Shown: positions 843 through 36,264 of the stretch, one piece after another
How the letters are laid out: each line of letters begins with the position of its first letter
Position numbering within the stretch: position 1 is the first letter of the stretch
From: Bacteroidota bacterium
GTDB lineage: Bacteria > Bacteroidota > Bacteroidia > NS11-12g > UBA9320
Assembly: GCA_947468275.1 (NCBI GenBank)
Contig: CANIKO010000012.1
Coordinates: forward strand, 1-64,000
Direction: 5' to 3'
Length of the DNA: 64,000 nucleotides
Notes under the pieces: model-generated
What the model was told of the DNA's origin: nothing
The model's database searches: none
Seen by the model: only the letters and a program-made list of their open reading frames with translations
Program-made: the position numbers and the translations under genes

Positions 843-977
843 GCTATAACATGGGTTTGGCAAAAGTGGGGCTTTAGTACTTGTCTGAACATTTGTACTT
901 TCTATTAGCTTTTGTAATAAATTTGAACTTTAGTACTTTCTAAACCCCACCTTCGCCAAGCCCAAAAACGTTATAGC
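843..977 (+). repeat. attC-like recombination site 2
   Basis: The left core GCTATAAC is at 843-850 and the right core GTTATAGC at 970-977. The stem pairs GGGTTTGGC (853-861) with GCCAAGCCC (955-963), and GTGGGG (866-871) with CCCCAC (945-950). The small unpaired AAAA/CTT bulge between the two helices resembles the spacers of attC stems. The loop (872-944) contains four degenerate TTTGTACTTT-like repeats spaced about 18-20 bp. Stem sequences match those of site 4 at 31419-31556, so two stem families exist in the window. Confidence 0.75.
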
Positions 978-23138: not shown

Positions 23139-24221
23139 ATGAAATGGCAAGCAAAAAGTATAATGTATAAAGGCCAAAGCAGGATTGCCGTATATTTTAA
23201 AAATACACCTGAACTAAATAATAGGATAAAACAACTTGAAGATGCTAAATGGAGCCAAACACTAAAAGTTTGGCACTTGCCCAATACCAAAGAAAACAAG
23301 ATAAAGTTTGGATTAATGCCATCGGCATCTACTGTATCAAAAACTACAAATACCTTAGAAATTGATTCCATTAACAAAATAATTCAATTTCAACAATGGC
23401 TTAGGAGCAAACGATATAGTGAAGCTACTGTAAAAACATACAGTGAAGCTTTGAAAACCTTCTTAAATTTTTATTCAAACAAACCAATAAATGAAATAAA
23501 CAATCAGGATGTAATATATTTTAACAATGAGTTTATACTTCGCCATGAGTTATCAGCCTCATATCAAAACCAAGTTGTAAATGCCATTAAGCTATTTTTT
23601 GCAAAAATTGAAAATACAAACTTAGATGTTGAATTAATACACCGACCTAAAAAATATAATCCTTTACCAAAAGTATTGGCAGCTGAGGAAGTAGCCTTAA
23701 TAATTAATGCCCTTGATAATATTAAGCACAAATGCATGATGAGCTTAATATACTCAGCCGGTTTAAGACGAAGCGAATTATTGAATATGAAAATTCATGA
23801 TATTGATAGCAAACGGATGCAATTATGTATTCGTAAATCCAAAGGAGGAAAGGATAGAATTGCCCCATTAAGCGAAACAGTATTGCAAATTTTAAGGCAA
23901 TACTATAAGGATTATAAGCCAAGCGATTACTTATTTGAAGGGCAAGGTGGAGAACAATACAGCGAAAGGAGTTTAGCCTTGGTATTAAAAAAAGGATGCT
24001 TACTGGCAGGCATTAAAAAACCAGTAAATCTTCATATGCTGCGACACAGTTATGCCACCCATCTTCTCGAATCAGGAACAGACTTGCGCTACATTCAAGA
24101 ACTATTGGGGCATAAAAGTAGTAAAACGACCGAAATCTACACTCATGTTAGTCAGCAATCAATTAATAAAATAGGCAGCCCCCTTGATAAACTAAATATA
24201 AAAATAGGAGGAAACGAATAA
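23139..24221 (+). CDS. Tyrosine recombinase, candidate integrase of the cassette array
   Basis: The 360-residue tyrosine recombinase breaks and rejoins DNA through a 3'-phosphotyrosine. It has an extra N-terminal module (1-60, with WSQTLKVWHLPN), a SAM-like core-binding domain (about 82-165) and a catalytic domain. All catalytic residues are present: Arg210 (SAGLRRSEL), Lys235 (SKGGKDR), His299 and Arg302 (HMLRHSYATH), His325 (LLGHKS), Tyr334 (EIYTHV). The C-terminal GSPLDKL resembles the SPLD tail of integron integrases. The extra IntI helix between the Lys and HxxR motifs is not seen. It lies 5' of and co-oriented with the cassettes, with only a terminator and the attI-like site between. 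XerC/D house-keeping function is less likely given the extra N-terminal module. Assignment as cassette integrase is inference from position. Confidence 0.85.
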   Translation: MKWQAKSIMYKGQSRIAVYFKNTPELNNRIKQLEDAKWSQTLKVWHLPNTKENKIKFGLMPSASTVSKTTNTLEIDSINKIIQFQQWLRSKRYSEATVKTYSEALKTFLNFYSNKPINEINNQDVIYFNNEFILRHELSASYQNQVVNAIKLFFAKIENTNLDVELIHRPKKYNPLPKVLAAEEVALIINALDNIKHKCMMSLIYSAGLRRSELLNMKIHDIDSKRMQLCIRKSKGGKDRIAPLSETVLQILRQYYKDYKPSDYLFEGQGGEQYSERSLALVLKKGCLLAGIKKPVNLHMLRHSYATHLLESGTDLRYIQELLGHKSSKTTEIYTHVSQQSINKIGSPLDKLNIKIGGNE

Positions 24222-24275: not shown

Positions 24276-24290
24276 AGAAAAAGAGTTTCC

Positions 24291-24310
24291 GCTATAACTA
24301 AGTTATGTGC
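24291..24310 (+). other. attI-like insertion site of the array
   Basis: GCTATAAC at 24291-24298 and GTTATGTGC at 24302-24310 form two inverted core sites only 3 bp apart, with no hairpin arms. The right core is complementary to the left core of site 3 (25506-25514), so it marks the start of cassette A. It may be a true attI or an attC site whose stem was lost. Confidence 0.5.
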
Positions 24311-24358
24311 AACCCTTGGACAAATTAAACTTTGAAACAATAATTCAGTCGAATATAT

Positions 24359-25486
24359 ATGAAAAAAATTATACTATTTATCAGCTTGACCATAATAACA
24401 CTGACTTCGGTTTTTTGTCAAAACGTGTATGACAGCATTTATGTTGGTAATCGTTGGCGTACTTACATGACGCACCTTCCAATTGGATACAATCCCTCTA
24501 ATCATTATCCATTGGTCTTAGCATTTCACGGAGGAAGTCCTTTGGGTTATCAATCAATTCAATATCAATCAGGCCTATCCCAAAAGGCAGACACTTCAAA
24601 CTTTATTGTGGTTTACCCAGAAGGCGTAAAGGTTTCAGGTAATAGGACTTGGAATGCAGGTGGCTGTTGTGCTCCTGCAACTACTCTAAATATTGACGAT
24701 GTTGGATTTGTTAATTCATTATTGAATAACCTATTTACCGCAAGACCAATTGATACGACTCGTGTTTATGCAACTGGATTTTCAAATGGTTCATTGCTTT
24801 GTTACCGTCTTGCAAATCAATTGACACACAGATTCGCTGCAATTGCTCCGGTAGCAGGTGATTTGATGTATTATCCTTGGAATCCATCGAGAGTTATTCC
24901 AATTATAAGTTTCCATTCCTATTTAGACCAAAATGTAAAGTATTTTGGAGGAATAACAGTTGGGGCAACAGGAACTTATTTCCCTCCTCAAGATAGTATG
25001 TTCAATATAATCAGTTCAAATTATAATTGCACGGTATTGAAAGACACATTATATCACAATGTCAGTCAATACGACCACTTTAAATATTCAAATTGTTCTT
25101 GCAACTCGGTTATAGAACAATATGTTAGTTATGATGGTGAACACTCTTGGCCTGGTGGACTTGCTTCAGGGGGTGTTACGGTAAGCAATCAGTTTAGTGC
25201 AACATATTTAATGTGGCAATTTTTTCAGAACTATACCACTACTTGTTTGACAACAGGAATTAACAATATTCCCGATAAGGTACACTCGAAAGTATATCCC
25301 AATCCTTTCACTGACAAAATCAATTTGACAAACACAACAGGTATGGAAAACTATATTTTATTAAATTCAATTGGGCAGGTAATCTGGACTGGTACGAAAG
25401 TAGAGCAAACCGATTTTTCATATTTGACAAACGGTCTTTACTTCCTGAAAGTTGACAGCAGAGTGATTAAATTAATTAAAGAATGA
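24359..25486 (+). CDS. Secreted PHB-depolymerase/feruloyl-esterase-like hydrolase with T9SS sorting domain (cassette A)
   Basis: The 375-residue protein has a signal peptide (cleavage near VFCQ, residue 20). Its alpha/beta-hydrolase domain is of the LpqC/poly(3-hydroxybutyrate) depolymerase type: oxyanion-hole region LAFHGGSP, nucleophile Ser142 in TGFSNGS, and a catalytic His in DGEHSWPGG near 255. NRTWNAGGCC near 95-104 is a family hallmark. From VYPNPFTD (about 311) a T9SS C-terminal sorting domain runs to the end, so the enzyme is expected at the cell surface or outside. The natural substrate may be an ester-linked polymer, but this cannot be specified. It starts about 57 bp after the attI-like core and ends 20 bp before site 3. 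Confidence 0.8.
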   Translation: MKKIILFISLTIITLTSVFCQNVYDSIYVGNRWRTYMTHLPIGYNPSNHYPLVLAFHGGSPLGYQSIQYQSGLSQKADTSNFIVVYPEGVKVSGNRTWNAGGCCAPATTLNIDDVGFVNSLLNNLFTARPIDTTRVYATGFSNGSLLCYRLANQLTHRFAAIAPVAGDLMYYPWNPSRVIPIISFHSYLDQNVKYFGGITVGATGTYFPPQDSMFNIISSNYNCTVLKDTLYHNVSQYDHFKYSNCSCNSVIEQYVSYDGEHSWPGGLASGGVTVSNQFSATYLMWQFFQNYTTTCLTTGINNIPDKVHSKVYPNPFTDKINLTNTTGMENYILLNSIGQVIWTGTKVEQTDFSYLTNGLYFLKVDSRVIKLIKE

Positions 25487-25505
25487 TATGCAGGAAAAAA
25501 GGGCA

Positions 25506-25642
25506 GCACATAACAGCACCTACAAGAAATTGGCGGTTCAGTGGTTAAATGAAGCTTTGTGCTTCGTATCAAGTTTTGTGCTGGCAGACAGTTTAGTGCT
25601 TCGAAATCGCCAACTTCTTGTAGCTGCAAACCGTTATAGGGC
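25506..25642 (+). repeat. attC-like recombination site 3
   Basis: The left core GCACATAAC is at 25506-25514 and the right core GTTATAGGGC at 25633-25642. The stem CTACAAGAAATTGGCG near the left core pairs in 15 of 16 positions with the segment just before the right spacer. The loop contains four TTTGTGCTTC-like repeats about 18-20 bp apart. Its left 40 bases are almost identical to those of sites 5 and 6, as in the homogeneous repeats of large chromosomal integrons. Confidence 0.8.
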
Positions 25643-25845
25643 ATTGTAAAACGACAGACAGAAAAGTAAATCGACAGACAGAAAATGAAAAGAAAAGCCA
25701 ACGCTTCGACAAAATCAAAAGAGGTGCAACCCAACACACAAGCCGACACACAGTTGCACCACATTTGCTTTTGCCCCAACGCACCAGCAAAACGACAAAT
25801 GACTGCAAATTTTAATACTTTTGACAACTAACACTTTGAAGCATA
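25643..25845. repeat. Leader of cassette B with hairpin-forming repeats
   Basis: The GACAGACAGAAAA motif occurs twice at about 25652-25685. An inverted repeat GAGGTGCAAC / GTTGCACC follows, and related pieces (GTTGCAC, ATTTGC, TTTTGCC, CCAACGCA) recur at the other end of the same cassette at 31285-31370. A TACTTTTG promoter box is at 25816-25823. No gene is seen. Confidence 0.45.
25816..25823 (+). promoter_or_regulatory. Putative -7 box for the defence operon
   Basis: TACTTTTG fits TAnnTTTG and lies 22 bp before the ATG at 25846. A matching -33 TTTG at the right distance is not clear, so the call is tentative. Confidence 0.35.
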
Positions 25846-27825
25846 ATGACAGCTATAATAATAATCGCAATAATAATTTTTATAATCTATGCCGCTTCGA
25901 GCAAGAAAAAACCGACCCAACAAAACACGACAAATACAAATCCCAACAACAAACAAAAATCTGAAAAGGAAATTCGAGATGAATTAGTGCAAAGTCTTAT
26001 TAAAAACATCAAAGTTACAGTGACGACATCAAGCGCAACAAGCAAATATAATGACGACTCAATTATTGATGTCACAGACCAATCCTACAGAATAAACTCA
26101 AATAGTAATTTGAAAAAATACAGTAGTGGTGTGCCCTACTGGGCACACCACTATGTTTATTCTTATTCTGAAATCAATAGTGCATCAAGTGAACAAAAGA
26201 AGTTCTACGCTATTTTCAAAAACAGCTTTTTAAATGGAGAGTATTTTGATTTAGAAGGAAACACGAATTATGCTTTCATTCTATTATTTGACTTGCTTAT
26301 TGAATTTGACAATCATAAAGACATATCTAAACTTGAAAGCCAACTTAAAATTTTAGGACAATGCTATCCAAAAACGAAATCATATGGTATATCATTCCTA
26401 ATTCAAAAAATGGAGGCAAATGGCGACAGTGATGGCGTTTCAAGACTTAGAGCAGAAGACAGATATAGTTATCAAAACTACAACACAGATTACGACTATT
26501 GGAGATTAGGGAGTAAGTACAAAACCAAACTAAAACTGAATGACGAAGAAGTTAAACTCCTAAACAAACTATGGTATCCGAGCAATAACTTTTGCAGTGT
26601 TGAATATTGTTGTATTGAAATTTTAAAACTCTATATTACTGTCATTGAAGAGTTAAAAGCCAGTTACATTGCGGAAGGAACAACAATTGATGCTCAATTC
26701 TTAACGGTTGCAGATGTAATTGCAAGAAAACATTTTAAATACAAGAATGGAAGTCAGAATTACAAGTATTGTATTGAAACAACAACCAATGAATTTTACT
26801 CTCATATTTTCAAACATTGTGAAAATGCCGTTCGTGAATATTACGGACATAAGAGAAAAATAAACACTGACACCTATTATACAACAGTAGAAGCAAAGAC
26901 GGAATTTGAAACTAAAATAATTTCCAAAGTATCAGGATTGCTACCCGTACTTATTTCTAAAGTTTCGGCACCAGACGAAGCCACAGAAATTGAATTGTAT
27001 TCACAAAATACAAATCGGTGGAAAATAAAGTTCGAGGAGTTAACTACACGCTATAATGAAAAGCCTAAAGAGTTTATTGATTCAATTGTCGCTGTTGGTA
27101 AACTAAATAAAAAGAATCCATCAATTGAAAATATTTTTTTTGAAGCATCAAAATTTATTGCAAAATATGATAAGGAATCAGCTCTTTCACTTTATGTTCA
27201 TTACTTATTTCACGATTTAAAATCTGCCACTTTCGATAATAAACAACTCACAAAAACTATTCAGAAAAGTTTATTCAAAACTAATGAACAATTACACGAT
27301 TTTGAAATAATTGTTAGTGAGTTAATCAAAGACAAAGATTTAGAAAAAGCATTAAAAAATGTTTCCAAAGTTTATGAAGTGAAACGAAAGAAAATACAAC
27401 TTAATAAAACTTCAATACAAGAAGTTCAGCAACAACACTCCGGAACTGTTGAACTACTTAATGAATATTTAAAAGACGATTTTGAGGATGAGAACAATTC
27501 TATAAAGTCGCAAGAAATAAACAATGAAGAAATAAAAATCGAAATCACGCAGAAAAGTGAAGAGACCTCTCATTCTGCATTTGTTAGCAACTTGACATTC
27601 TCCCCAATACACATATCGGCTTTGGAGCTTTTCTCAAAGAGTAATTTTTCAATTCCACAAAGCGAACTTGAAATATTTGCAAAATCAAAAGGCATCTTTA
27701 AAAATCAATTAATCGAAAGCATTAATGAAACTTGCTATGATTTTTTAGATGATGTATTGATTGAGGAAGAAGACGATTATTACACAATTAACACAAACTA
27801 TTTTCAAAGAATTTCTGTACAATGA
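25846..27825 (+). CDS. TerB-N/TerB-C domain protein, first gene of a BREX-related defence module (cassette B)
   Basis: The 659-residue protein starts with a membrane anchor (ITAIIIIAIIIFIIYA). The part at about 85-200 fits TerB-N: FYAIFKNSFLNGEYFDLEG, then YAFILLFDLL. The C terminus (about 575-655) fits TerB-C: a wHTH-like stretch ending in SINETCYDFLDDVLIEEED. TerB-N/TerB-C proteins belong to Ter-linked stress and conflict systems. It overlaps the BrxD-like gene by 4 bp. This points to a complex with the ATPase and helicase, perhaps anchored to the membrane. Domain calls rest on my reading of motifs, with no profile search. Confidence 0.65.
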   Translation: MTAIIIIAIIIFIIYAASSKKKPTQQNTTNTNPNNKQKSEKEIRDELVQSLIKNIKVTVTTSSATSKYNDDSIIDVTDQSYRINSNSNLKKYSSGVPYWAHHYVYSYSEINSASSEQKKFYAIFKNSFLNGEYFDLEGNTNYAFILLFDLLIEFDNHKDISKLESQLKILGQCYPKTKSYGISFLIQKMEANGDSDGVSRLRAEDRYSYQNYNTDYDYWRLGSKYKTKLKLNDEEVKLLNKLWYPSNNFCSVEYCCIEILKLYITVIEELKASYIAEGTTIDAQFLTVADVIARKHFKYKNGSQNYKYCIETTTNEFYSHIFKHCENAVREYYGHKRKINTDTYYTTVEAKTEFETKIISKVSGLLPVLISKVSAPDEATEIELYSQNTNRWKIKFEELTTRYNEKPKEFIDSIVAVGKLNKKNPSIENIFFEASKFIAKYDKESALSLYVHYLFHDLKSATFDNKQLTKTIQKSLFKTNEQLHDFEIIVSELIKDKDLEKALKNVSKVYEVKRKKIQLNKTSIQEVQQQHSGTVELLNEYLKDDFEDENNSIKSQEINNEEIKIEITQKSEETSHSAFVSNLTFSPIHISALELFSKSNFSIPQSELEIFAKSKGIFKNQLIESINETCYDFLDDVLIEEEDDYYTINTNYFQRISVQ

Positions 27826-29135
27826 TAGATAACATTAAACCTAAAGAAGCTACATCAATTATCAATTCCTTAATTGGTGGCGTAGTTCCAAAAATCGGAG
27901 TTCAACACATTACAGTTGGGCGTTCGGAAGAAATAAATGCCGTTGTTGCTGCATTAGAAGATGTAAAGAATGGGCATAGTATGGTAAAATTCTGGATTGG
28001 CGACTTCGGTTCAGGCAAATCATTTATGCTTCATTTACTCAACACTGTTGCTTTGAAGCAGAAATTTGTGGTAGCAAATGCTGACTTTACCCCTGACAAT
28101 CGTTTGTATTCAAATGACGGAAAAGGAGTTGCTCTCTATTCTGCCATTATGGATAATGTTTCCATTCAAACTAAGCCAGAAGGCGGTGCATTACCAACTT
28201 TGTTGGAAAAGTGGATTGAGCAAATTGTAACTAAAACTGCCGAAGAAAATAAAATTTCATTGACAGATATTCGCAATGAACAATACTTGAATCTCATTCA
28301 AAACAACATAATGAAAACTATTAATGAAATCACTGATGTAGGTGGTTTCGACTTTGGAATGGTTGTAATGAAATACTACGAAGGCTACATAAAAGATGAT
28401 GAACAATTAAGAAGGAATGCTTTAAAATGGCTAAAAGGAGAATACAGAACCAAAACGGAGGCAAAGCAAGATTTAGGAGTTAGAGAAGTAATTAATGATT
28501 TGAATTACTATGATATGCTAAAAAACTTCTGTAAACTCTTTGTAAGTATGGGTTATAGCGGATTTTTGGTAAATCTTGACGAAGCTATAAATCTTTACAA
28601 GATTTCAACTTCTGTAATGAGGGAGAAAAATTACGAGAAAATATTAACCATTTACAACGATTGTTTTCAAGGTAAAGTAGCAAATCTGTTTTTTAATTTT
28701 GCAGGTACAAAAGAAGTTTTAGAAAACGAACGCAGAGGACTTTTTAGTTATAATGCTTTAAAGTCAAGGCTTCTTACAAATAAATTTGAAACAGCAGAAT
28801 TAAGAGATTTTGCACAGCCAGTAATTCGTTTAATGCCACTTGACCACAACGAAATATTTGTACTGTTGAAGAAATTGAAAGCAATCTTTGATTACAATTA
28901 TAAAACTGAAATTTCCATAAGTGATAACGAAATTCACCAGTTTATGGAGGAGCTGTTTAACAAGCCTGGTGCATCAGAATTTTTAACCCCAAGAGAAGTA
29001 ATTCGAGACTTTTTGAATATTCTAAACATCATTAGACAAAATCCAACAGTAGATAAAAATAAGCTATTTGGTGAACTTGAAATTTCGGATGAAAGACCTA
29101 ATGAAGTTTCTTTAGACAGCATTGAAGAATTATAA
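27822..29135 (+). CDS. BrxD-like ATPase (DUF2791 family)
   Basis: The 437-residue P-loop ATPase has Walker A GDFGSGKS at 60-67 and Walker B FLVNLDEAINL near 246. LIGGVVPKIGVQHITVGRSEE at the start and the phrase NADFTPDNRLY behind the P-loop are typical of DUF2791, the family of BrxD in type 2 BREX. It overlaps the TerB-N gene by 4 bp and the helicase by 1 bp, so the three proteins are made together in a fixed ratio. PglX, PglZ, BrxC and PglW are absent, so this is not a full BREX system. Confidence 0.75.
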   Translation: MIDNIKPKEATSIINSLIGGVVPKIGVQHITVGRSEEINAVVAALEDVKNGHSMVKFWIGDFGSGKSFMLHLLNTVALKQKFVVANADFTPDNRLYSNDGKGVALYSAIMDNVSIQTKPEGGALPTLLEKWIEQIVTKTAEENKISLTDIRNEQYLNLIQNNIMKTINEITDVGGFDFGMVVMKYYEGYIKDDEQLRRNALKWLKGEYRTKTEAKQDLGVREVINDLNYYDMLKNFCKLFVSMGYSGFLVNLDEAINLYKISTSVMREKNYEKILTIYNDCFQGKVANLFFNFAGTKEVLENERRGLFSYNALKSRLLTNKFETAELRDFAQPVIRLMPLDHNEIFVLLKKLKAIFDYNYKTEISISDNEIHQFMEELFNKPGASEFLTPREVIRDFLNILNIIRQNPTVDKNKLFGELEISDERPNEVSLDSIEEL

Positions 29136-31261
29136 TGTCATTTGATTTACTTTCAGAACCAATACGAAAATTCATTCGTGATAAGGGTTGGGAACAATTG
29201 CGACCAATTCAAACAGCAGCTATTGCCAAAATTTTAGCATCGGACGACAATTTTATTTTGGCATCACGGACTGCATCAGGAAAAACAGAAGCCGCATTTT
29301 TACCAATTCTTTCAAAAGTTAATTTCAATGATTCAGGTGTTCAAGTTCTTTATATTTCACCGTTAATAGCTTTGATTAATGACCAATTTTATCGTATTGA
29401 AGAACTTTGCAAAAATCTTGATGTAACAGTCACTAAGTGGCACGGTGAAGCAAATAAAACACTCAAAGAAAGACTAATTAAACAGCCCAATGGAATTGTT
29501 CTAATTACACCCGAATCATTGGAGGCAATGTTTGTAAACAAACCTTACAATGTAAAGCAATTATTTTCAAATCTAAAGTATGTAGTAATTGATGAGATAC
29601 ACTCATTTATTGGAACGGACAGAGGTATTCAATTAAAATCAATTTTGTCAAGACTACAAAAAGTTAATTCTAAATCATTCAGTATTGTTGGCCTTTCGGC
29701 AACAATTGGGGATTATGATGAAGCCAAAAAGTTCACAGGTGATGAATTAAAAACAAAGGTTCTTTTAGACAGAACAGCTAAAGAAATCAATGCACTATTT
29801 CGTTATTTCAAAAACAAAAACGAAGAGTTGCCTTTGGAGCTTTTAAAAGATTTATATATTGAGACCAAAGACAATAAAGTTCTAATTTTCCCTAACAGTA
29901 GAGGACGAGCCGAAGAAGTAGCAGTAAAACTTAGAAAAATATCGGAAAGAGTAAAAGGACATCCCAATTATTTTTCACATCATTCATCTGTAGACAGAGA
30001 AGTAAGAGAGTATGTTGAATACTTTGCGAAAAATAACAATCGGCAAAACTTCTGTATTTCCTGCACATCAACATTAGAACTCGGTATTGACATTGGAACT
30101 GTTGATGAAGTTGTTCAAATTGATGCAACACATAGTATAGCTTCATTAATTCAACGAGTTGGCAGAAGCGGCAGAAAGGAAGGAGAAAGTAGTAATTTGT
30201 ATTTGTATGCCACAAATGAGTGGAGTTTACTTCAATCAATAGCTTGTTGGTTATTATACAAGGAAGGTTTTATCGAACCACCTCAAAAAAATGAGAAAGC
30301 ATATGACATTTTAGTTCATCAAGCATTATCAATAACCAAAGGACATTCAGGCATAAGATTAACAGAATTAATAAATCAACTCCAAGAAAATGCAGCGTTT
30401 CAGCAAATTGAACTTTCAGAAATTGACGAAATACTTAAACATTTAATTGAAATTGATTTTCTTGAAAAATTGCAACACGAAGTTATAATTGGTGTGGAAG
30501 GCGAAAAGGTAGTAAATAGCCGTGACTTTTATAGCGTATTTAAAACAGAAGAAAACTTTAAAGTTGTAAATGCTGGCAATACAATAGGTGAGATACCATT
30601 TTCACCACAAATTATTGAGGATGAAAATATTTTGCTTTCTGCTAAAATTTGGAAAATAAAATTCGTTGACCACAAGGCGAAAAAAATAGAAGTAATACCA
30701 ACAAAGGACGGAAAAAAACCAATGTTTTTTGGAGGTGGAGCTACTATACATCAAAGAATAAGAGAGAAAATGTTTGAAGTTCTCTATTCTAAAACGGACT
30801 ACGATTTTCTTGACCAACCAAGTTGTGATGAAACAGAAATACTTCGAAAAGACTTCTCTGTTTTCAACATTAAGGACTTACAATCCGACAGACCATTACT
30901 AACAGCAGAAAAAAACTTACAACTCTTTACATTCACTGGGACAAGAATAAACAGAACTATTCAATTGCTTTTAAATATTGCAGGGATTAAAAATACGCTT
31001 GATGACAGCAGTAGTTCATTTGACATTGAAGTGCCTAAACAAGAGTTGATATCAAGATGGAGTTATTTATTATTTCCGCTGACAGACATTGATACACACA
31101 TATCAACCCTTTTGCAGACAAATCCTGCCCTATTAGATTTTTCTAAATGGGGGACATATTTACCAGACAACTATAAAATCAAACTTGTAAAGGACAGATA
31201 TTTTGACATTGAACAAACTGCACAACTTTTAAGAACTATGAAACTAATAGAAAACGAATAA
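29135..31261 (+). CDS. BrxHI/Lhr-like DEAD/DEAH-box helicase
   Basis: The 708-residue SF2 helicase has Q-like motif LRPIQTAAI at 22-30, Walker A SRTASGKT at 44-51, Walker B DEIH at 153-156 and motif III SATIGD near 190. Motif VI is QRVGRSGR. The C-terminal half resembles Lhr-type helicases, matching the BrxHI helicase of type 2 BREX. It starts on the last base of the BrxD-like gene stop. Cassette position and companions suggest antiphage activity; this is inference. Confidence 0.8.
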   Translation: MSFDLLSEPIRKFIRDKGWEQLRPIQTAAIAKILASDDNFILASRTASGKTEAAFLPILSKVNFNDSGVQVLYISPLIALINDQFYRIEELCKNLDVTVTKWHGEANKTLKERLIKQPNGIVLITPESLEAMFVNKPYNVKQLFSNLKYVVIDEIHSFIGTDRGIQLKSILSRLQKVNSKSFSIVGLSATIGDYDEAKKFTGDELKTKVLLDRTAKEINALFRYFKNKNEELPLELLKDLYIETKDNKVLIFPNSRGRAEEVAVKLRKISERVKGHPNYFSHHSSVDREVREYVEYFAKNNNRQNFCISCTSTLELGIDIGTVDEVVQIDATHSIASLIQRVGRSGRKEGESSNLYLYATNEWSLLQSIACWLLYKEGFIEPPQKNEKAYDILVHQALSITKGHSGIRLTELINQLQENAAFQQIELSEIDEILKHLIEIDFLEKLQHEVIIGVEGEKVVNSRDFYSVFKTEENFKVVNAGNTIGEIPFSPQIIEDENILLSAKIWKIKFVDHKAKKIEVIPTKDGKKPMFFGGGATIHQRIREKMFEVLYSKTDYDFLDQPSCDETEILRKDFSVFNIKDLQSDRPLLTAEKNLQLFTFTGTRINRTIQLLLNIAGIKNTLDDSSSSFDIEVPKQELISRWSYLLFPLTDIDTHISTLLQTNPALLDFSKWGTYLPDNYKIKLVKDRYFDIEQTAQLLRTMKLIENE

Positions 31262-31418
31262 AATTGAACAATACGTTTGACATATCGCCAACGCTATTGG
31301 TTGCACATTTGCATTTTTGCCAATACACAATCCCAACGCAAAAAATGCAAAAGAGCAACCAAGCCAACGCACAACGACAGACCATAGCGGACAGACAAAC
31401 ACAACCGAAAAAAACAAC
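31262..31418. repeat. Long imperfect hairpin at the end of cassette B
   Basis: TTGGTTGC and TTTGCATTTTTGC around 31290-31315 pair with GCAAAAAATGCAAA and GCAACCAA around 31340-31370. The stem has about 20 paired bases and a three-base internal bulge on each side. It may act as a terminator for the defence operon. Related words occur at the front of the same cassette (25712-25790). Confidence 0.5.
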
Positions 31419-31556
31419 GCCCTATAACACGGGTTTGGCAAAAGTGGCGGTTCAGTGCTCCGCAGACACATTTGTGGTTCATCAAAGTTTGGTTCTCCGC
31501 ATCAACATTTGTGGTGAAAATCGCCACCTTCGCCAAGCCCGAAAACGTTATGCACA
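31419..31556 (+). repeat. attC-like recombination site 4
   Basis: The left core GCCCTATAAC is at 31419-31428 and the right core GTTATGCACA at 31547-31556. The stem pairs GGGTTTGGC with GCCAAGCCC and GTGGCG with CGCCAC, the same stem family as site 2 at 843-977. The loop carries four TTTGTGGTTC-like repeats. The left core is the exact complement of the right core of site 3. Confidence 0.8.
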
Positions 31557-32730: not shown

Positions 32731-32869
32731 TGTGCATAACAGCACCTACAAGAAATTGGCGGTTCAGTGGTTCGTATGACAGTTTTGTGGTTCAACAAAC
32801 ATTAGTTTTTCAAATCAAGGTTTGTGGTAAAAGTCCCGCCCTTCGGGTAGCTGCAAACCGTTACCAGTA
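32731..32869 (+). repeat. attC-like recombination site 5
   Basis: The left core TGTGCATAAC is at 32731-32740 and the right core GTTACCAGTA at 32860-32869. The left arm equals that of sites 3 and 6, but the right arm (32838-32857) has drifted. Only GGCGG/CCGCC and CTAC/GTAG still pair well, so the stem has a larger internal bulge. The loop has the phased TTTTGTGGTTC repeats. Confidence 0.75.
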
Positions 32870-32874
32870 ATTTT

Positions 32875-33336
32875 ATGACAACACAAAACGACATATTTCC
32901 ATCAGACTTTAAAGCAATTCTTGAAAGTTTATACTATCAAGAAAATGGTGGACTTGTTATCTCATCATTGAATTATATAAATAACAACCTTAAAGTTTTG
33001 TTCACCCTTTCATATGGCGACAACGAGACACCAGAGCAAATTTGGCAACTTGACATCGTAGACATTGAAAAAGAACGATTTGTTAGAGACTGGGCAACTT
33101 TTCCAGAAATTTATTCTGACCACTTCTTACTTTATGAATTTATCGACAACTACATAGAACTTTACTTTAACGGTGCGACATCAAATCCCGAAAAATTACT
33201 TGCTGACCTTTATAATTTACATATTTCAAATTACAGTAACGACCTTGACTTTGGACTAGGAATAAATGCACCAAACGGAATGCTAAAGCTATGCACGAAT
33301 GACAATGGTTTGTTTGCGAAAAGTTTCCAAACCTAA
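32875..33336 (+). CDS. Hypothetical protein (cassette D, first gene)
   Basis: A 153-residue acidic protein with no signal and no domain I know. Its ATG is only 15 bp behind the crossover point of site 5, so the cassette has no room for a promoter or leader. Transcription must come from the preceding cassette or from the att site itself. It is followed after 4 bp by the carboxylesterase. Confidence 0.6.
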   Translation: MTTQNDIFPSDFKAILESLYYQENGGLVISSLNYINNNLKVLFTLSYGDNETPEQIWQLDIVDIEKERFVRDWATFPEIYSDHFLLYEFIDNYIELYFNGATSNPEKLLADLYNLHISNYSNDLDFGLGINAPNGMLKLCTNDNGLFAKSFQT

Positions 33337-33340
33337 TAAA

Positions 33341-35029
33341 ATGACAGCAAAAAATATTTATGAAGTTTTCACAAAAGATAGTCACATTTTAAAAGGCCAT
33401 ACAGCTGAACTAAAAGGAGTTACTTATAAAGGATTTCAGTCTTATGCTGATACTACAATACAATTTAGGGGTTTACCCTATGGAAGTGATACTTCTGGAA
33501 ATAACAGATTCAAGTACGCTGAACTTTTTACCACTTCTTCCAAAGAAATCGATTGCACCAAATATGGCCCAGCTTGTTGGCAACATCCAGTTGGAGCTAG
33601 AATGATTTACGAAGGACTTGGCGTTTTGTTAAAAGAAGGCCTTTTCCCATCAACAAAAAAAGGTAGTTCTTTAATTTACGGAGATTTTAGTGAGGACTGC
33701 CTCAATTTGAATCTTTGGACGCCCAAGTTAGATGAAGAAAAACGTCCTGTCCTAGTATGGATTCATGGAGGTGCTTTTAAAAGTGGTAGTAATATTGAAT
33801 GTGAACTTTATAATGGAAACCACTTAGCTCAACGAGGAAATGTAGTAGTTATTTGTTTAAATTATAGATTTGGGATGTTTGGTTTTAACTTTCCAGAAGA
33901 AAACAGAACCAATATTGCTTTAAGTGACCAAATATTAGGATTAAAGTGGATACAGGAAAATATTTCACAGTTTGGTGGTGATCCAAATAATGTGACAATT
34001 TTCGGAGAAAGCGCAGGCGGGATATCCGTGGCATCGCTTTTAGGAAGTCCTATGGCTAAAGGATTGTTTCATAAAGCAATTTGTCAAAGTGGTGGCGCAG
34101 AAAACATGACCAAACAAGAGTTTAATCACTTAACAATAGCAGCAACTAAAAGTTTTAAATTGAATACCTCTAACACTTTGAGACCAGAAGATTTATTAAC
34201 TATCGAACCTGATATATTAGTTAAAAAAGGATCAAAAATTGAAGAAACATTAGAACATAATGGAAGTAGTAAAATTGGATTCATGCCCATTATTGATGGC
34301 AAGTATATATGTGAAGAAGGTACATTAAATGCTATTCAATCTGGTAAAGGATCCAAGATACCGTTATTGGTTGGTTCTAATGCGGAAGAAATGAAATTGT
34401 TTTTCGCTTTGCTTGGCTGGTTATCTCCCTTCGATGAAAAAACAGTGTTAGCAGCTATTAGACAACGTTTTAATTTAGTCGAAATAAATGAGCCAAAGGA
34501 AACTTATGAAAAATTAAAAGAAATTAGTGAGCAACTTAAAGCTTTAACGGAGAAAAAATTACAAAATAGCTTGAATGTAACACCAAAGAAAAAACAAATT
34601 TTAGAAGCTTTATTAACTTTTCTTCAATTTACCATTCCTTCATACGAACTAGCTGAGGCTCAAAACAATGCAGAATGTGATGTTTATTCTTACATATTAA
34701 ACTATGGGTCAGAAAAATATGGTGCTTGCCATGGGATTGATTTACAATTACTTTGGAATTTCGGACATCCAAATGAGGACTATTTTAGTAACGGAAAAAA
34801 TAAAGTTATTTCCGAGAATCCTAAAGCAGCACCTTTAGCTCGTTTTGCAGAATCCATTCAAGATGCATGGATACATTTTGCATGGTATGGAAAACCAGCA
34901 TCTATTGAAAAAAATGAATGGAAAGCCTTTCCGAATAGAATGGATTTGGATTTGTCTTCTTCAACTTCCAATTGGAACAACGATGAAATGATTATTTATT
35001 GGAAGTCGGTACGGTCGATTTTTAAATAA
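33341..35029 (+). CDS. Type-B carboxylesterase (cassette D)
   Basis: A 562-residue alpha/beta-hydrolase of the carboxylesterase B / cholinesterase family. It shows EDCLNLNLW near 119, oxyanion HGGAF at 142-146 and nucleophile Ser224 in FGESAGG. An acid is probable in VGSNAEEMK and the His in ACHGIDLQLLW. I chose the ATG at 33341, 4 bp after the preceding stop, over an upstream in-frame ATG at 33299 that would overlap the upstream gene by 38 bp. No signal peptide, so it is cytoplasmic. Substrate unknown. Confidence 0.85.
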   Translation: MTAKNIYEVFTKDSHILKGHTAELKGVTYKGFQSYADTTIQFRGLPYGSDTSGNNRFKYAELFTTSSKEIDCTKYGPACWQHPVGARMIYEGLGVLLKEGLFPSTKKGSSLIYGDFSEDCLNLNLWTPKLDEEKRPVLVWIHGGAFKSGSNIECELYNGNHLAQRGNVVVICLNYRFGMFGFNFPEENRTNIALSDQILGLKWIQENISQFGGDPNNVTIFGESAGGISVASLLGSPMAKGLFHKAICQSGGAENMTKQEFNHLTIAATKSFKLNTSNTLRPEDLLTIEPDILVKKGSKIEETLEHNGSSKIGFMPIIDGKYICEEGTLNAIQSGKGSKIPLLVGSNAEEMKLFFALLGWLSPFDEKTVLAAIRQRFNLVEINEPKETYEKLKEISEQLKALTEKKLQNSLNVTPKKKQILEALLTFLQFTIPSYELAEAQNNAECDVYSYILNYGSEKYGACHGIDLQLLWNFGHPNEDYFSNGKNKVISENPKAAPLARFAESIQDAWIHFAWYGKPASIEKNEWKAFPNRMDLDLSSSTSNWNNDEMIIYWKSVRSIFK

Positions 35030-35233
35030 AAAATCTGATTTGAGTATTGAGAATTACTTATTTATTAAAAAAAGTAAATCTGTATGTTAAATCAGACTGT
35101 TGCAATTTATTTTTCCTAAGTATTTACTATTTTTGAATAAACTATCTCTCGGTTTTGGTTCCAGATAAGCACCGAAAATGGAGTGTATATTACTATTTTT
35201 AGAAACTATATGAACTAATTAAACCTAAATAAC

Positions 35234-35668
35234 ATGGCAAAGACAAACATCTACTTAAATTTTCAAGGGAATGCTGAAGAAGCGTTCAACCTGTATAAAT
35301 CGGTTTTCAATACAGAGTGGGCAGCTCCTATTATGCGTATGGGCGACATGCCTCAACAAGAAGGAATGCCTCAACTTTCAGAGGAAGAAAAAAAAATGGT
35401 TATGCATGTATCACTTCCAATTTTAGGAGGAACAAACATCATGGGAACAGACATTTTAGAAAGTATGGGGCACAAACTAACTATTGGTAATAATACTACT
35501 ATAAGTTTAGAACCGGATACAAAAGAAGGGGCAGATAGAATTTACAACATACTTTCTCAAGGAGGAACTGATTGTGTTGCTCCACACGAACAATTTTTGG
35601 GGTACTGGGGTGTTTGTCTTGATAAATTTGGGATACGCTGGATGTTTAATGTACCAAATCAATACTAA
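35234..35668 (+). CDS. VOC family protein, PhnB-like (cassette D)
   Basis: A 144-residue vicinal-oxygen-chelate fold protein of the PhnB/DUF3861-like group (TNIYLNFQGNAEEAFNLYKSVF; MHVSLPILGGTNIMGTDILES; GYWGVCLDKFGIRWMFN). Small members are glyoxalase/bleomycin-resistance relatives, and no substrate can be assigned. The 204 bp in front carry a TATTTTTG box at 35128-35135 but no gene. Confidence 0.8.
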   Translation: MAKTNIYLNFQGNAEEAFNLYKSVFNTEWAAPIMRMGDMPQQEGMPQLSEEEKKMVMHVSLPILGGTNIMGTDILESMGHKLTIGNNTTISLEPDTKEGADRIYNILSQGGTDCVAPHEQFLGYWGVCLDKFGIRWMFNVPNQY

Positions 35669-35701
35669 AAGATAAATTCTACACTTACTAACTTAGGTTA
35701 A

Positions 35702-36109
35702 ATGAAAAACAAAATTGGAACAAAGGAAAAACCGCTTATTTTAAAAACACCTCCTTTATCAAGTGAATATACCATGCATGTAGACGAAAAAGATGGTAAA
35801 GAACTATTGGTTTGTAAGGTTGGTAAAACAGTTTTGCATTACGATGCAAAAATTCTTGACGATTTACATGCGATGCTAAAAAAGCATGGCGACTGGATTG
35901 AACTTGGCAGTGCAGACGAACAAAAACCTGCAAAAGACGGAACAGTTGAAGCTTGGGGGCGTTCAGAAAAAAATCCTATAAAAGGTTGGTATGGTTTGAA
36001 AAAAGGTTTGAGAGGTAGAGTAGGAATGTATATTCCACCACTAATGGAAGCGCTTGGACTTGCAGAAGTGACCCACGATGCAAAGGGAAATAAGATGAAA
36101 GCAAAGTAA
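35702..36109 (+). CDS. Small conserved protein, possibly DUF6855-like (cassette D, last gene)
   Basis: A 135-residue basic soluble protein with TPPLSSEYTMHVDEKDGKE and KNPIKGWYGLKKGLRGRVG stretches. I believe it is of a conserved small family (DUF6855-like), without known function. It is 33 bp behind the VOC gene and ends 18 bp before site 6. Confidence 0.6.
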   Translation: MKNKIGTKEKPLILKTPPLSSEYTMHVDEKDGKELLVCKVGKTVLHYDAKILDDLHAMLKKHGDWIELGSADEQKPAKDGTVEAWGRSEKNPIKGWYGLKKGLRGRVGMYIPPLMEALGLAEVTHDAKGNKMKAK

Positions 36110-36127
36110 CCGCAGACAGAAAAGCAC

Positions 36128-36264
36128 TACTGGTAACAGCACCTACAAGAAATTGGCGGTTCAGTGGTTAAATAAACATTTGTGCTTCGCATCAAGTTCA
36201 GTGCTGGCTGACAGTTTTGTGCTCCGAAATCGCCAACTTCTTGTAGCTGCAAAACGTTAAACTA
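36128..36264 (+). repeat. attC-like recombination site 6, end of the array
   Basis: The left core TACTGGTAAC is at 36128-36137 and is the exact complement of the right core of site 5. The right core GTTAAACTA is at 36256-36264. The stem is the same as in site 3. No further site follows. 36265-36470 holds no gene that I recognise, only AT-rich sequence with a GC-rich patch near 36280-36300. Confidence 0.8.

What the first reader, a model, noticed from the sequence alone, without database searches (positions are those of the whole stretch)
25633..31547. A 5.9-kb cassette carrying a TerB-N/TerB-C + BrxD + BrxHI module
Integron cassettes usually hold one small gene. Here one cassette carries three tightly overlapping genes (4-bp and 1-bp overlaps): a membrane-anchored TerB-N/TerB-C protein, a DUF2791 BrxD-like ATPase and an Lhr/BrxHI-like helicase. 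BrxD and BrxHI belong to type 2 BREX, but the methylase, PglZ and BrxC are missing. It looks like a compact independent defence or stress system moved as one unit.
Basis: partly seen in the sequence, partly recalled or inferred. Interest (0 to 1): 0.8.

Follow-up and report, generated by a model that had tools for sequence, protein, structure and literature searches.

The report
Shango phage-defence operon as mobile cassette
A known three-gene bacterial anti-phage system called Shango sits complete inside one unusually large mobile gene cassette of an integron-like array in a Bacteroidota bacterium; near-identical copies lie in two other genomes, which suggests that whole multi-gene defence systems can spread this way.

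Summary
They are not a new BREX-derived module: they are a complete Shango anti-phage system (PADLOC SngA 1e-46, SngB 6e-168, SngC 3e-216), whose defence activity is published for Pseudomonas and E. coli. BREX partners are absent. TerB-C is confirmed; TerB-N is not detected. What is notable is the vehicle. The operon fills one 5.9-kb cassette between two attC-like sites, downstream of a tyrosine recombinase with a conserved attI-like site. A MAG of another lineage (rpoB 72% nt identical) carries the same cassette at 95.6% nt identity, beginning at the attC core, in a different array. A third genome carries it from the same base, with two extra genes (DUF4062, Schlafen-AlbA_2) between sngB and sngC. 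The recombinase lacks the IntI-specific insert, so this is integron-like rather than a textbook integron. A 2025 survey, known to me only through a review, found defence systems of more than two genes absent from integrons; this is a counterexample. Cassette transfer is strongly supported; Shango's mechanism remains inferred (SngB loading the SngC helicase, SngA as membrane-tethered sensor).

The parts
23139..24221 (+). Tyrosine recombinase/integrase (360 aa, XerA-type, with an extra ~75-aa N-terminal region; no IntI-specific insert)
   Evidence: PF00589 148 bits; NF040815 230 bits, above cut-off 220; TIGR02249 integron integrase 206 bits, below cut-off 265; about 43 residues shorter than VchIntIA 2A3V at the IntI insert
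24290..24312 (+). attI-like site, core G24302^TTA
   Evidence: An AGTTA core follows the integrase stop at a similar distance (about 80-115 bp) in all seven integrase loci compared
24303..25633 (+). Cassette 1: esterase with T9SS sorting tail (24359-25486)
25511..25636 (+). attC-like site at the left end of the Shango cassette (core G25633^TTA)
   Evidence: CM 106.8 bits; bottom strand folds at -22.8 kcal/mol, z -3.5
25634..31547 (+). Shango cassette, 5.9 kb, three genes, no internal attC-like site
   Evidence: Same unit at 95.6% nt in L006 (homology 25625-31550) and starting at 25632 in L007
25723..25760 (+). Leader hairpin GGTGCAAC...GTTGCACC in a C-rich leader; leader words recur in unrelated cassettes
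   Evidence: Fold z -3.0; shared words in L113 and L119
25846..27825 (+). sngA: 659 aa, N-terminal hydrophobic segment, helical middle, TerB_C domain
   Evidence: PDLC03958 1.1e-46; PF15615 9.6e-35; AF2 mean pLDDT 78
27822..29135 (+). sngB: 437 aa AAA+ ATPase, Walker A GDFGSGKS (from residue 60), LVNLDE (from residue 249)
   Evidence: PDLC03959 5.5e-168; motif residues conserved in 26 homologues
29135..31261 (+). sngC: 708 aa SF2 helicase of the Lhr/BrxHI type
   Evidence: PDLC03960 3.4e-216; SGKT, DEIH, SAT and QRxGRSGR invariant; best PDB match Lhr 5v9x 6.5e-43
31293..31364 (+). Hairpin after sngC and before the attC
   Evidence: Fold z -5.1
31425..31550 (+). attC-like site at the right end of the Shango cassette (core G31547^TTA)
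   Evidence: CM 135 bits; bottom strand z -2.8; nearly identical copy at the same place in L006
31548..32860 (+). Cassette 3: two ORFs of unknown family (166 and 196 aa)
32737..32863 (+). attC-like site 3 (weak hairpin: not better than shuffles)
   Evidence: CM 108 bits; z 0.1
32861..36256 (+). Cassette 4: 153-aa ORF, carboxylesterase, YjdN-like protein, DUF6855
36134..36259 (+). attC-like site 4, last of the array
   Evidence: CM 107.5 bits; bottom strand z -3.5

Best explanation
A complete Shango anti-phage operon (sngA-sngB-sngC) is carried as one 5.9-kb gene cassette, in second position of a four-cassette integron-like array of a Bacteroidota bacterium. Shown: family identity, intact ATPase and helicase motifs, purifying selection, cassette boundaries, and the same cassette in other contexts in distant genomes. 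Inferred: a XerA-type recombinase cuts at the G^TTA cores of folded attC sites and inserts circular cassettes at the attI-like site. Inferred by analogy with BrxD/BrxHI: SngB forms an ORC/Cdc6-like AAA+ assembly that loads or activates the Lhr-type helicase SngC on invading DNA, while SngA, tethered to the membrane and ending in a TerB_C domain, senses or localises the complex near entering phage DNA.
For: PADLOC hits to all three Shango models in order. Published anti-phage activity of the TerB/ATPase/helicase system Shango of P. aeruginosa PA14, 10-100-fold (PMC10250203). The same gene order and tight coupling in most of the 80 loci recovered. Homology to L006 spans 25625-31550 at 95.6% nt, while rpoB is 72% nt between the two genomes. 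Three different left flanks join at the same CGTTATAGGGCAT. dN/dS about 0.013-0.14 per gene against L006 and L007 (from dN and dS). attC-like sites follow homologous integrases in five other genomes and an attI-like core in seven of seven loci. No SngB in the three congeners sampled. The helicase-loader idea for BrxD/BrxHI comes from PMC12839542.
Against: The recombinase lacks the IntI-specific insert, and no excision or insertion was measured. The right end of L006 is a contig end, so only its left junction and its attC are fully seen. Site 32737 folds no better than shuffles. The covariance model was built partly from these same sites. The SngA model had no significant PDB match and the SngB model was poor, so the mechanism rests on analogy. 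Expression in second position is untested.
Confidence: 0.85

Rival explanations
1. A remnant of a type 2 BREX operon (BrxD+BrxHI) that lost its methylase, PglZ and BrxC.
For: SngB and SngC are homologous to BrxD and BrxHI (148.6 and 449 bits).
Against: Both score far higher on Shango models (557.6 and 718); NCBI's BrxD cut-off is not met; SngA is not a BREX protein; the same trio recurs without BREX genes. The genome's only PglZ match is a roughly 525-aa open frame on another contig, a size that fits the T9SS regulator PorX (PorX from my own knowledge).
Confidence: 0.03
2. A Ter-type stress-response module that is not primarily anti-phage, for example for DNA or envelope stress.
For: The TerB_C domain and the membrane segment; I found no phage test of any Bacteroidota SngABC.
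Against: Homologous systems from two species restrict phages. The cassette copies lie among defence genes in L007 (bSEFIR, HEC-09) and near a type IIG R-M cassette in L006.
Confidence: 0.08
3. The operon was spread by another mobile element or by homologous recombination, and the flanking repeats are incidental.
For: Most other Shango loci have no attC-like match: of 39 of the 80 loci searched, only L020 and L033 besides L006 and L007 had significant sites, and these do not bracket the operon. So the operon does also spread otherwise.
Against: Breakpoints of nucleotide homology fall on the G^TTA core in three different contexts; the contexts in the window and in L006 are themselves arrays.
Confidence: 0.08

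Closest known systems
Shango (SngABC), P. aeruginosa PA14 and E. coli
   Same: Three contiguous genes: TerB-like protein, DUF2791 ATPase, DEAD/DEAH helicase; best PADLOC match for each protein
   Different: Bacteroidota SngA keeps TerB_C but has no detectable TerB_N or TerB, unlike SngA of the other phyla examined; carried as a cassette rather than in a defence hotspot
Type 2 BREX BrxD and BrxHI
   Same: Homologous ATPase and Lhr-like helicase as a tightly linked pair; helicase-loading model proposed (PMC12839542)
   Different: No PglX, PglZ, BrxC or PglW nearby; distinct subfamilies by score
Integron defence cassettes (Darracq 2025; Kieffer 2025; both known to me through PMC12409362 and PMC12690207)
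   Same: Anti-phage genes stored and moved as attC cassettes
   Different: Those are reported as small and streamlined, with systems of more than two genes absent; this is an unreduced three-gene, 5.9-kb cassette with a non-IntI recombinase

Membership tests
Shango | SngA, SngB and SngC homologues in one operon, in this order | tested here: met
Shango | TerB-type domains in SngA | tested here: inconclusive
   TerB_C met; TerB_N and TerB not detected in the Bacteroidota members, present in other phyla; N-terminal similarity suggestive only
Shango | Intact ATPase and helicase motifs | tested here: met
Shango | Protection against phages | not testable with these tools
   Published for other species
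Type 2 BREX | Core BrxC, PglX methylase and PglZ in the locus | tested here: not met
   None among the cassette genes or the eight larger window proteins tested; only a roughly 525-aa PglZ-domain frame on another contig
Type 2 BREX | SngB meets the BrxD equivalog cut-off | tested here: not met
   150 bits against 350
Integron | IntI with the IntI-specific insert | tested here: not met
   Alignment to 2A3V; TIGR02249 below cut-off
Integron | attI site next to the integrase | tested here: met
   Conserved AGTTA core after the integrase in 7 of 7 loci; activity not tested
Integron | attC sites folding on the bottom strand, between cassettes in one orientation | tested here: met
   Bottom-strand folds beat shuffles for 3 of 4 sites; bottom beats top strand for the two sites folded both ways; array shown
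Integron | Integrase-dependent cassette recombination | not testable with these tools
   Indirect only: the same cassette in different arrays

The most novel reading that the evidence does not exclude
Bacteroidota have an integron-like platform, run by a XerA-type recombinase without the IntI insert, that collects and moves operon-sized cassettes. It can spread whole multi-gene defence systems (Shango, type IIG R-M) across the phylum and such cassettes can take up accessory genes, as in the DUF4062 + Schlafen-AlbA_2 insertion of L007.
Probability: 0.4. Interest if true: 0.75.

Novelty: new variant of a known kind. Interest (0 to 1): 0.52.

Why it matters
Integron cassettes are thought to hold one or two small genes, and a survey reported through a review found larger defence systems absent from them. 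A complete, unreduced three-gene system in a cassette that moved recently between distant Bacteroidota argues that the size limit is not general, and it names a recombinase whose activity can be tested. Tools that look for canonical IntI may miss such arrays.

Tried and rejected
BREX remnant: rejected on scores and context. TerB_N in SngA: not found by Pfam; hhalign gives ordered landmarks but only 2.8% probability. SngA fold search: no significant match. SngB structure: mean pLDDT 58, not used. A hairpin of 14 pairs inside sngA at 26123-26154: erodes in diverged homologues, taken as a chance coding effect. Carriage on phages, viral contigs or plasmids: no SngB match in phage records, no relative of SngC confirmed in viral contigs, and no near-identical cassette on plasmids, although more distant SngB homologues are on 679 plasmid records. 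Empty site: the left flank is syntenic in three congeners at about 70-92% nt, and in one (G005) synteny ends 39 bp before the integrase, but the right flank was not found colinear, so no clean empty site is claimed.

Full report
Observation. A C-rich leader, the operon and a C-rich tail lie between two attC-like sites, and no further site lies inside.

Identity. Against PADLOC the proteins hit SngA (1.1e-46), SngB (5.5e-168) and SngC (3.4e-216) in order. Pfam gives TerB_C for SngA, BrxC_BrxD for SngB and DEAD/Helicase_C for SngC. Shango was shown to inhibit several Pseudomonas phages 10-100-fold and was also reported in E. coli (PMC10250203). The trio is conserved in most of 80 loci from Bacteroidota and Ignavibacteria, mostly with the same 4-bp and 1-bp overlaps. 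SngB is remarkably conserved (mean column identity 86%), SngC less (71%), SngA least (29%). ATPase and helicase motifs are intact and invariant.

A lineage difference. SngA proteins from Proteobacteria and a Fusobacterium carry TerB_N, TerB and TerB_C, and a Paenibacillus one carries TerB_N and TerB_C. In the 42 Bacteroidota-type SngA, TerB_C is found in all, while TerB_N and TerB are not among the families listed (the list shows the 25 commonest). Profile comparison aligns the C-terminal part with confidence; the N-terminal part shows ordered landmarks (W, Y, G, YP) without significance. Most have a hydrophobic N-terminal segment (32 of 42 by a simple threshold).

The vehicle. Upstream stands a tyrosine recombinase that scores above NCBI's XerA cut-off but below the integron-integrase one. 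Aligned to VchIntIA (2A3V), it has about 21 residues where that protein has about 64, so it lacks the IntI-specific insert that integron surveys use to recognise IntI (PMC9668308). Four attC-like sites follow, three of which fold far better than shuffles as bottom strand; for the two sites folded both ways the bottom strand is the more stable. With a covariance model, sites were found downstream of homologous integrases in G051, G037, G038, G011 and G002, none of them in the training set. An AGTTA core stands at a similar distance after the integrase stop in seven of seven loci. Three loci around more distant recombinases (L137, L138, L139) gave no site.

Transfer. L006, from the MAG 'Bacteroidetes bacterium SZAS-4', holds the same cassette at 95.6% nt over 25625-31550, in an array with other cassettes, one of them with a type IIG restriction-modification gene. 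rpoB of the two genomes is only 72% identical in nucleotides and 75% in protein. In L007 homology starts at 25632; its genome is titled Limnohabitans, but its rpoB is 76% identical in protein to that of the Bacteroidetes MAG, so the title looks wrong or the bin mixed. The three left flanks differ and meet at the same CGTTATAGGGCAT. The window's congeners sampled lack SngB, which was found in 6 of 395 genomes of the class, own genome included. Recent horizontal transfer of the cassette as a unit is the simplest reading. dN/dS of about 0.013 to 0.14, computed, shows that the genes are kept under selection.

A variant. In L007 two genes, a DUF4062 protein and a Schlafen-AlbA_2/ATPase-like protein, sit exactly between sngB and sngC. 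They may be an accessory effector module; this is inference.

Mechanism. No study of Shango's molecular mechanism was found in the library. For the related BrxD and BrxHI, an ORC/Cdc6-like ATPase loading or activating a helicase on target DNA has been proposed (PMC12839542). I carry that over to SngB and SngC, with SngA as membrane-tethered sensor. I put this detailed mechanism at about 0.35, the Shango identity at 0.97 and movement as a cassette at 0.9.

Novelty. The defence system is known. What is new, as far as the held literature shows, is a complete system of more than two genes in a cassette: the review PMC12409362 states that the survey by Darracq and colleagues found such larger systems absent from integrons and the others reduced in size. 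The proteins here are of normal length for the family. I have not read the primary survey.

Noticed in passing
L007:7575-9591: Two genes (DUF4062; Schlafen-AlbA_2 with HATPase_c_4) inserted precisely between sngB and sngC of a cassette-borne Shango; the second resembles part of a PADLOC pAgo model (1.7e-17).
   Followed up: partly
L006:3367-6841: A type IIG restriction-modification gene with an HTH gene forms another large (about 4 kb) defence cassette in the same kind of array.
   Followed up: partly
window 25640-25800; L113:1300-1400; L119:2345 and 7885: A C-rich, G-poor cassette leader with shared words (CCAACGCTT, CAAAA-CAAAAGAG) recurs in cassettes of different content and contains a hairpin in the Shango cassette; function unknown.
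   Followed up: partly
window 847-973 and 110-228: A strong and a weak attC-like site 22 kb upstream of the integrase, next to a 166-aa ORF: perhaps an isolated cassette outside the array.
   Followed up: no
G000 contigs C1, C4, C7, C11, C16, C18, C29: Seven further attC-like sites scattered in the genome, plus a second related integrase (57% identity) on C7.
   Followed up: partly
L007:2338-3817: bSEFIR and HEC-09 (NYN) defence genes directly upstream of the Shango cassette; the record is titled Limnohabitans but the genome's rpoB is Bacteroidota-like.
   Followed up: partly
L168 (G004:C16:50000-56097): A congener has the same left flank followed by fragments of the integrase gene, as if the platform is decaying there.
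   Followed up: partly
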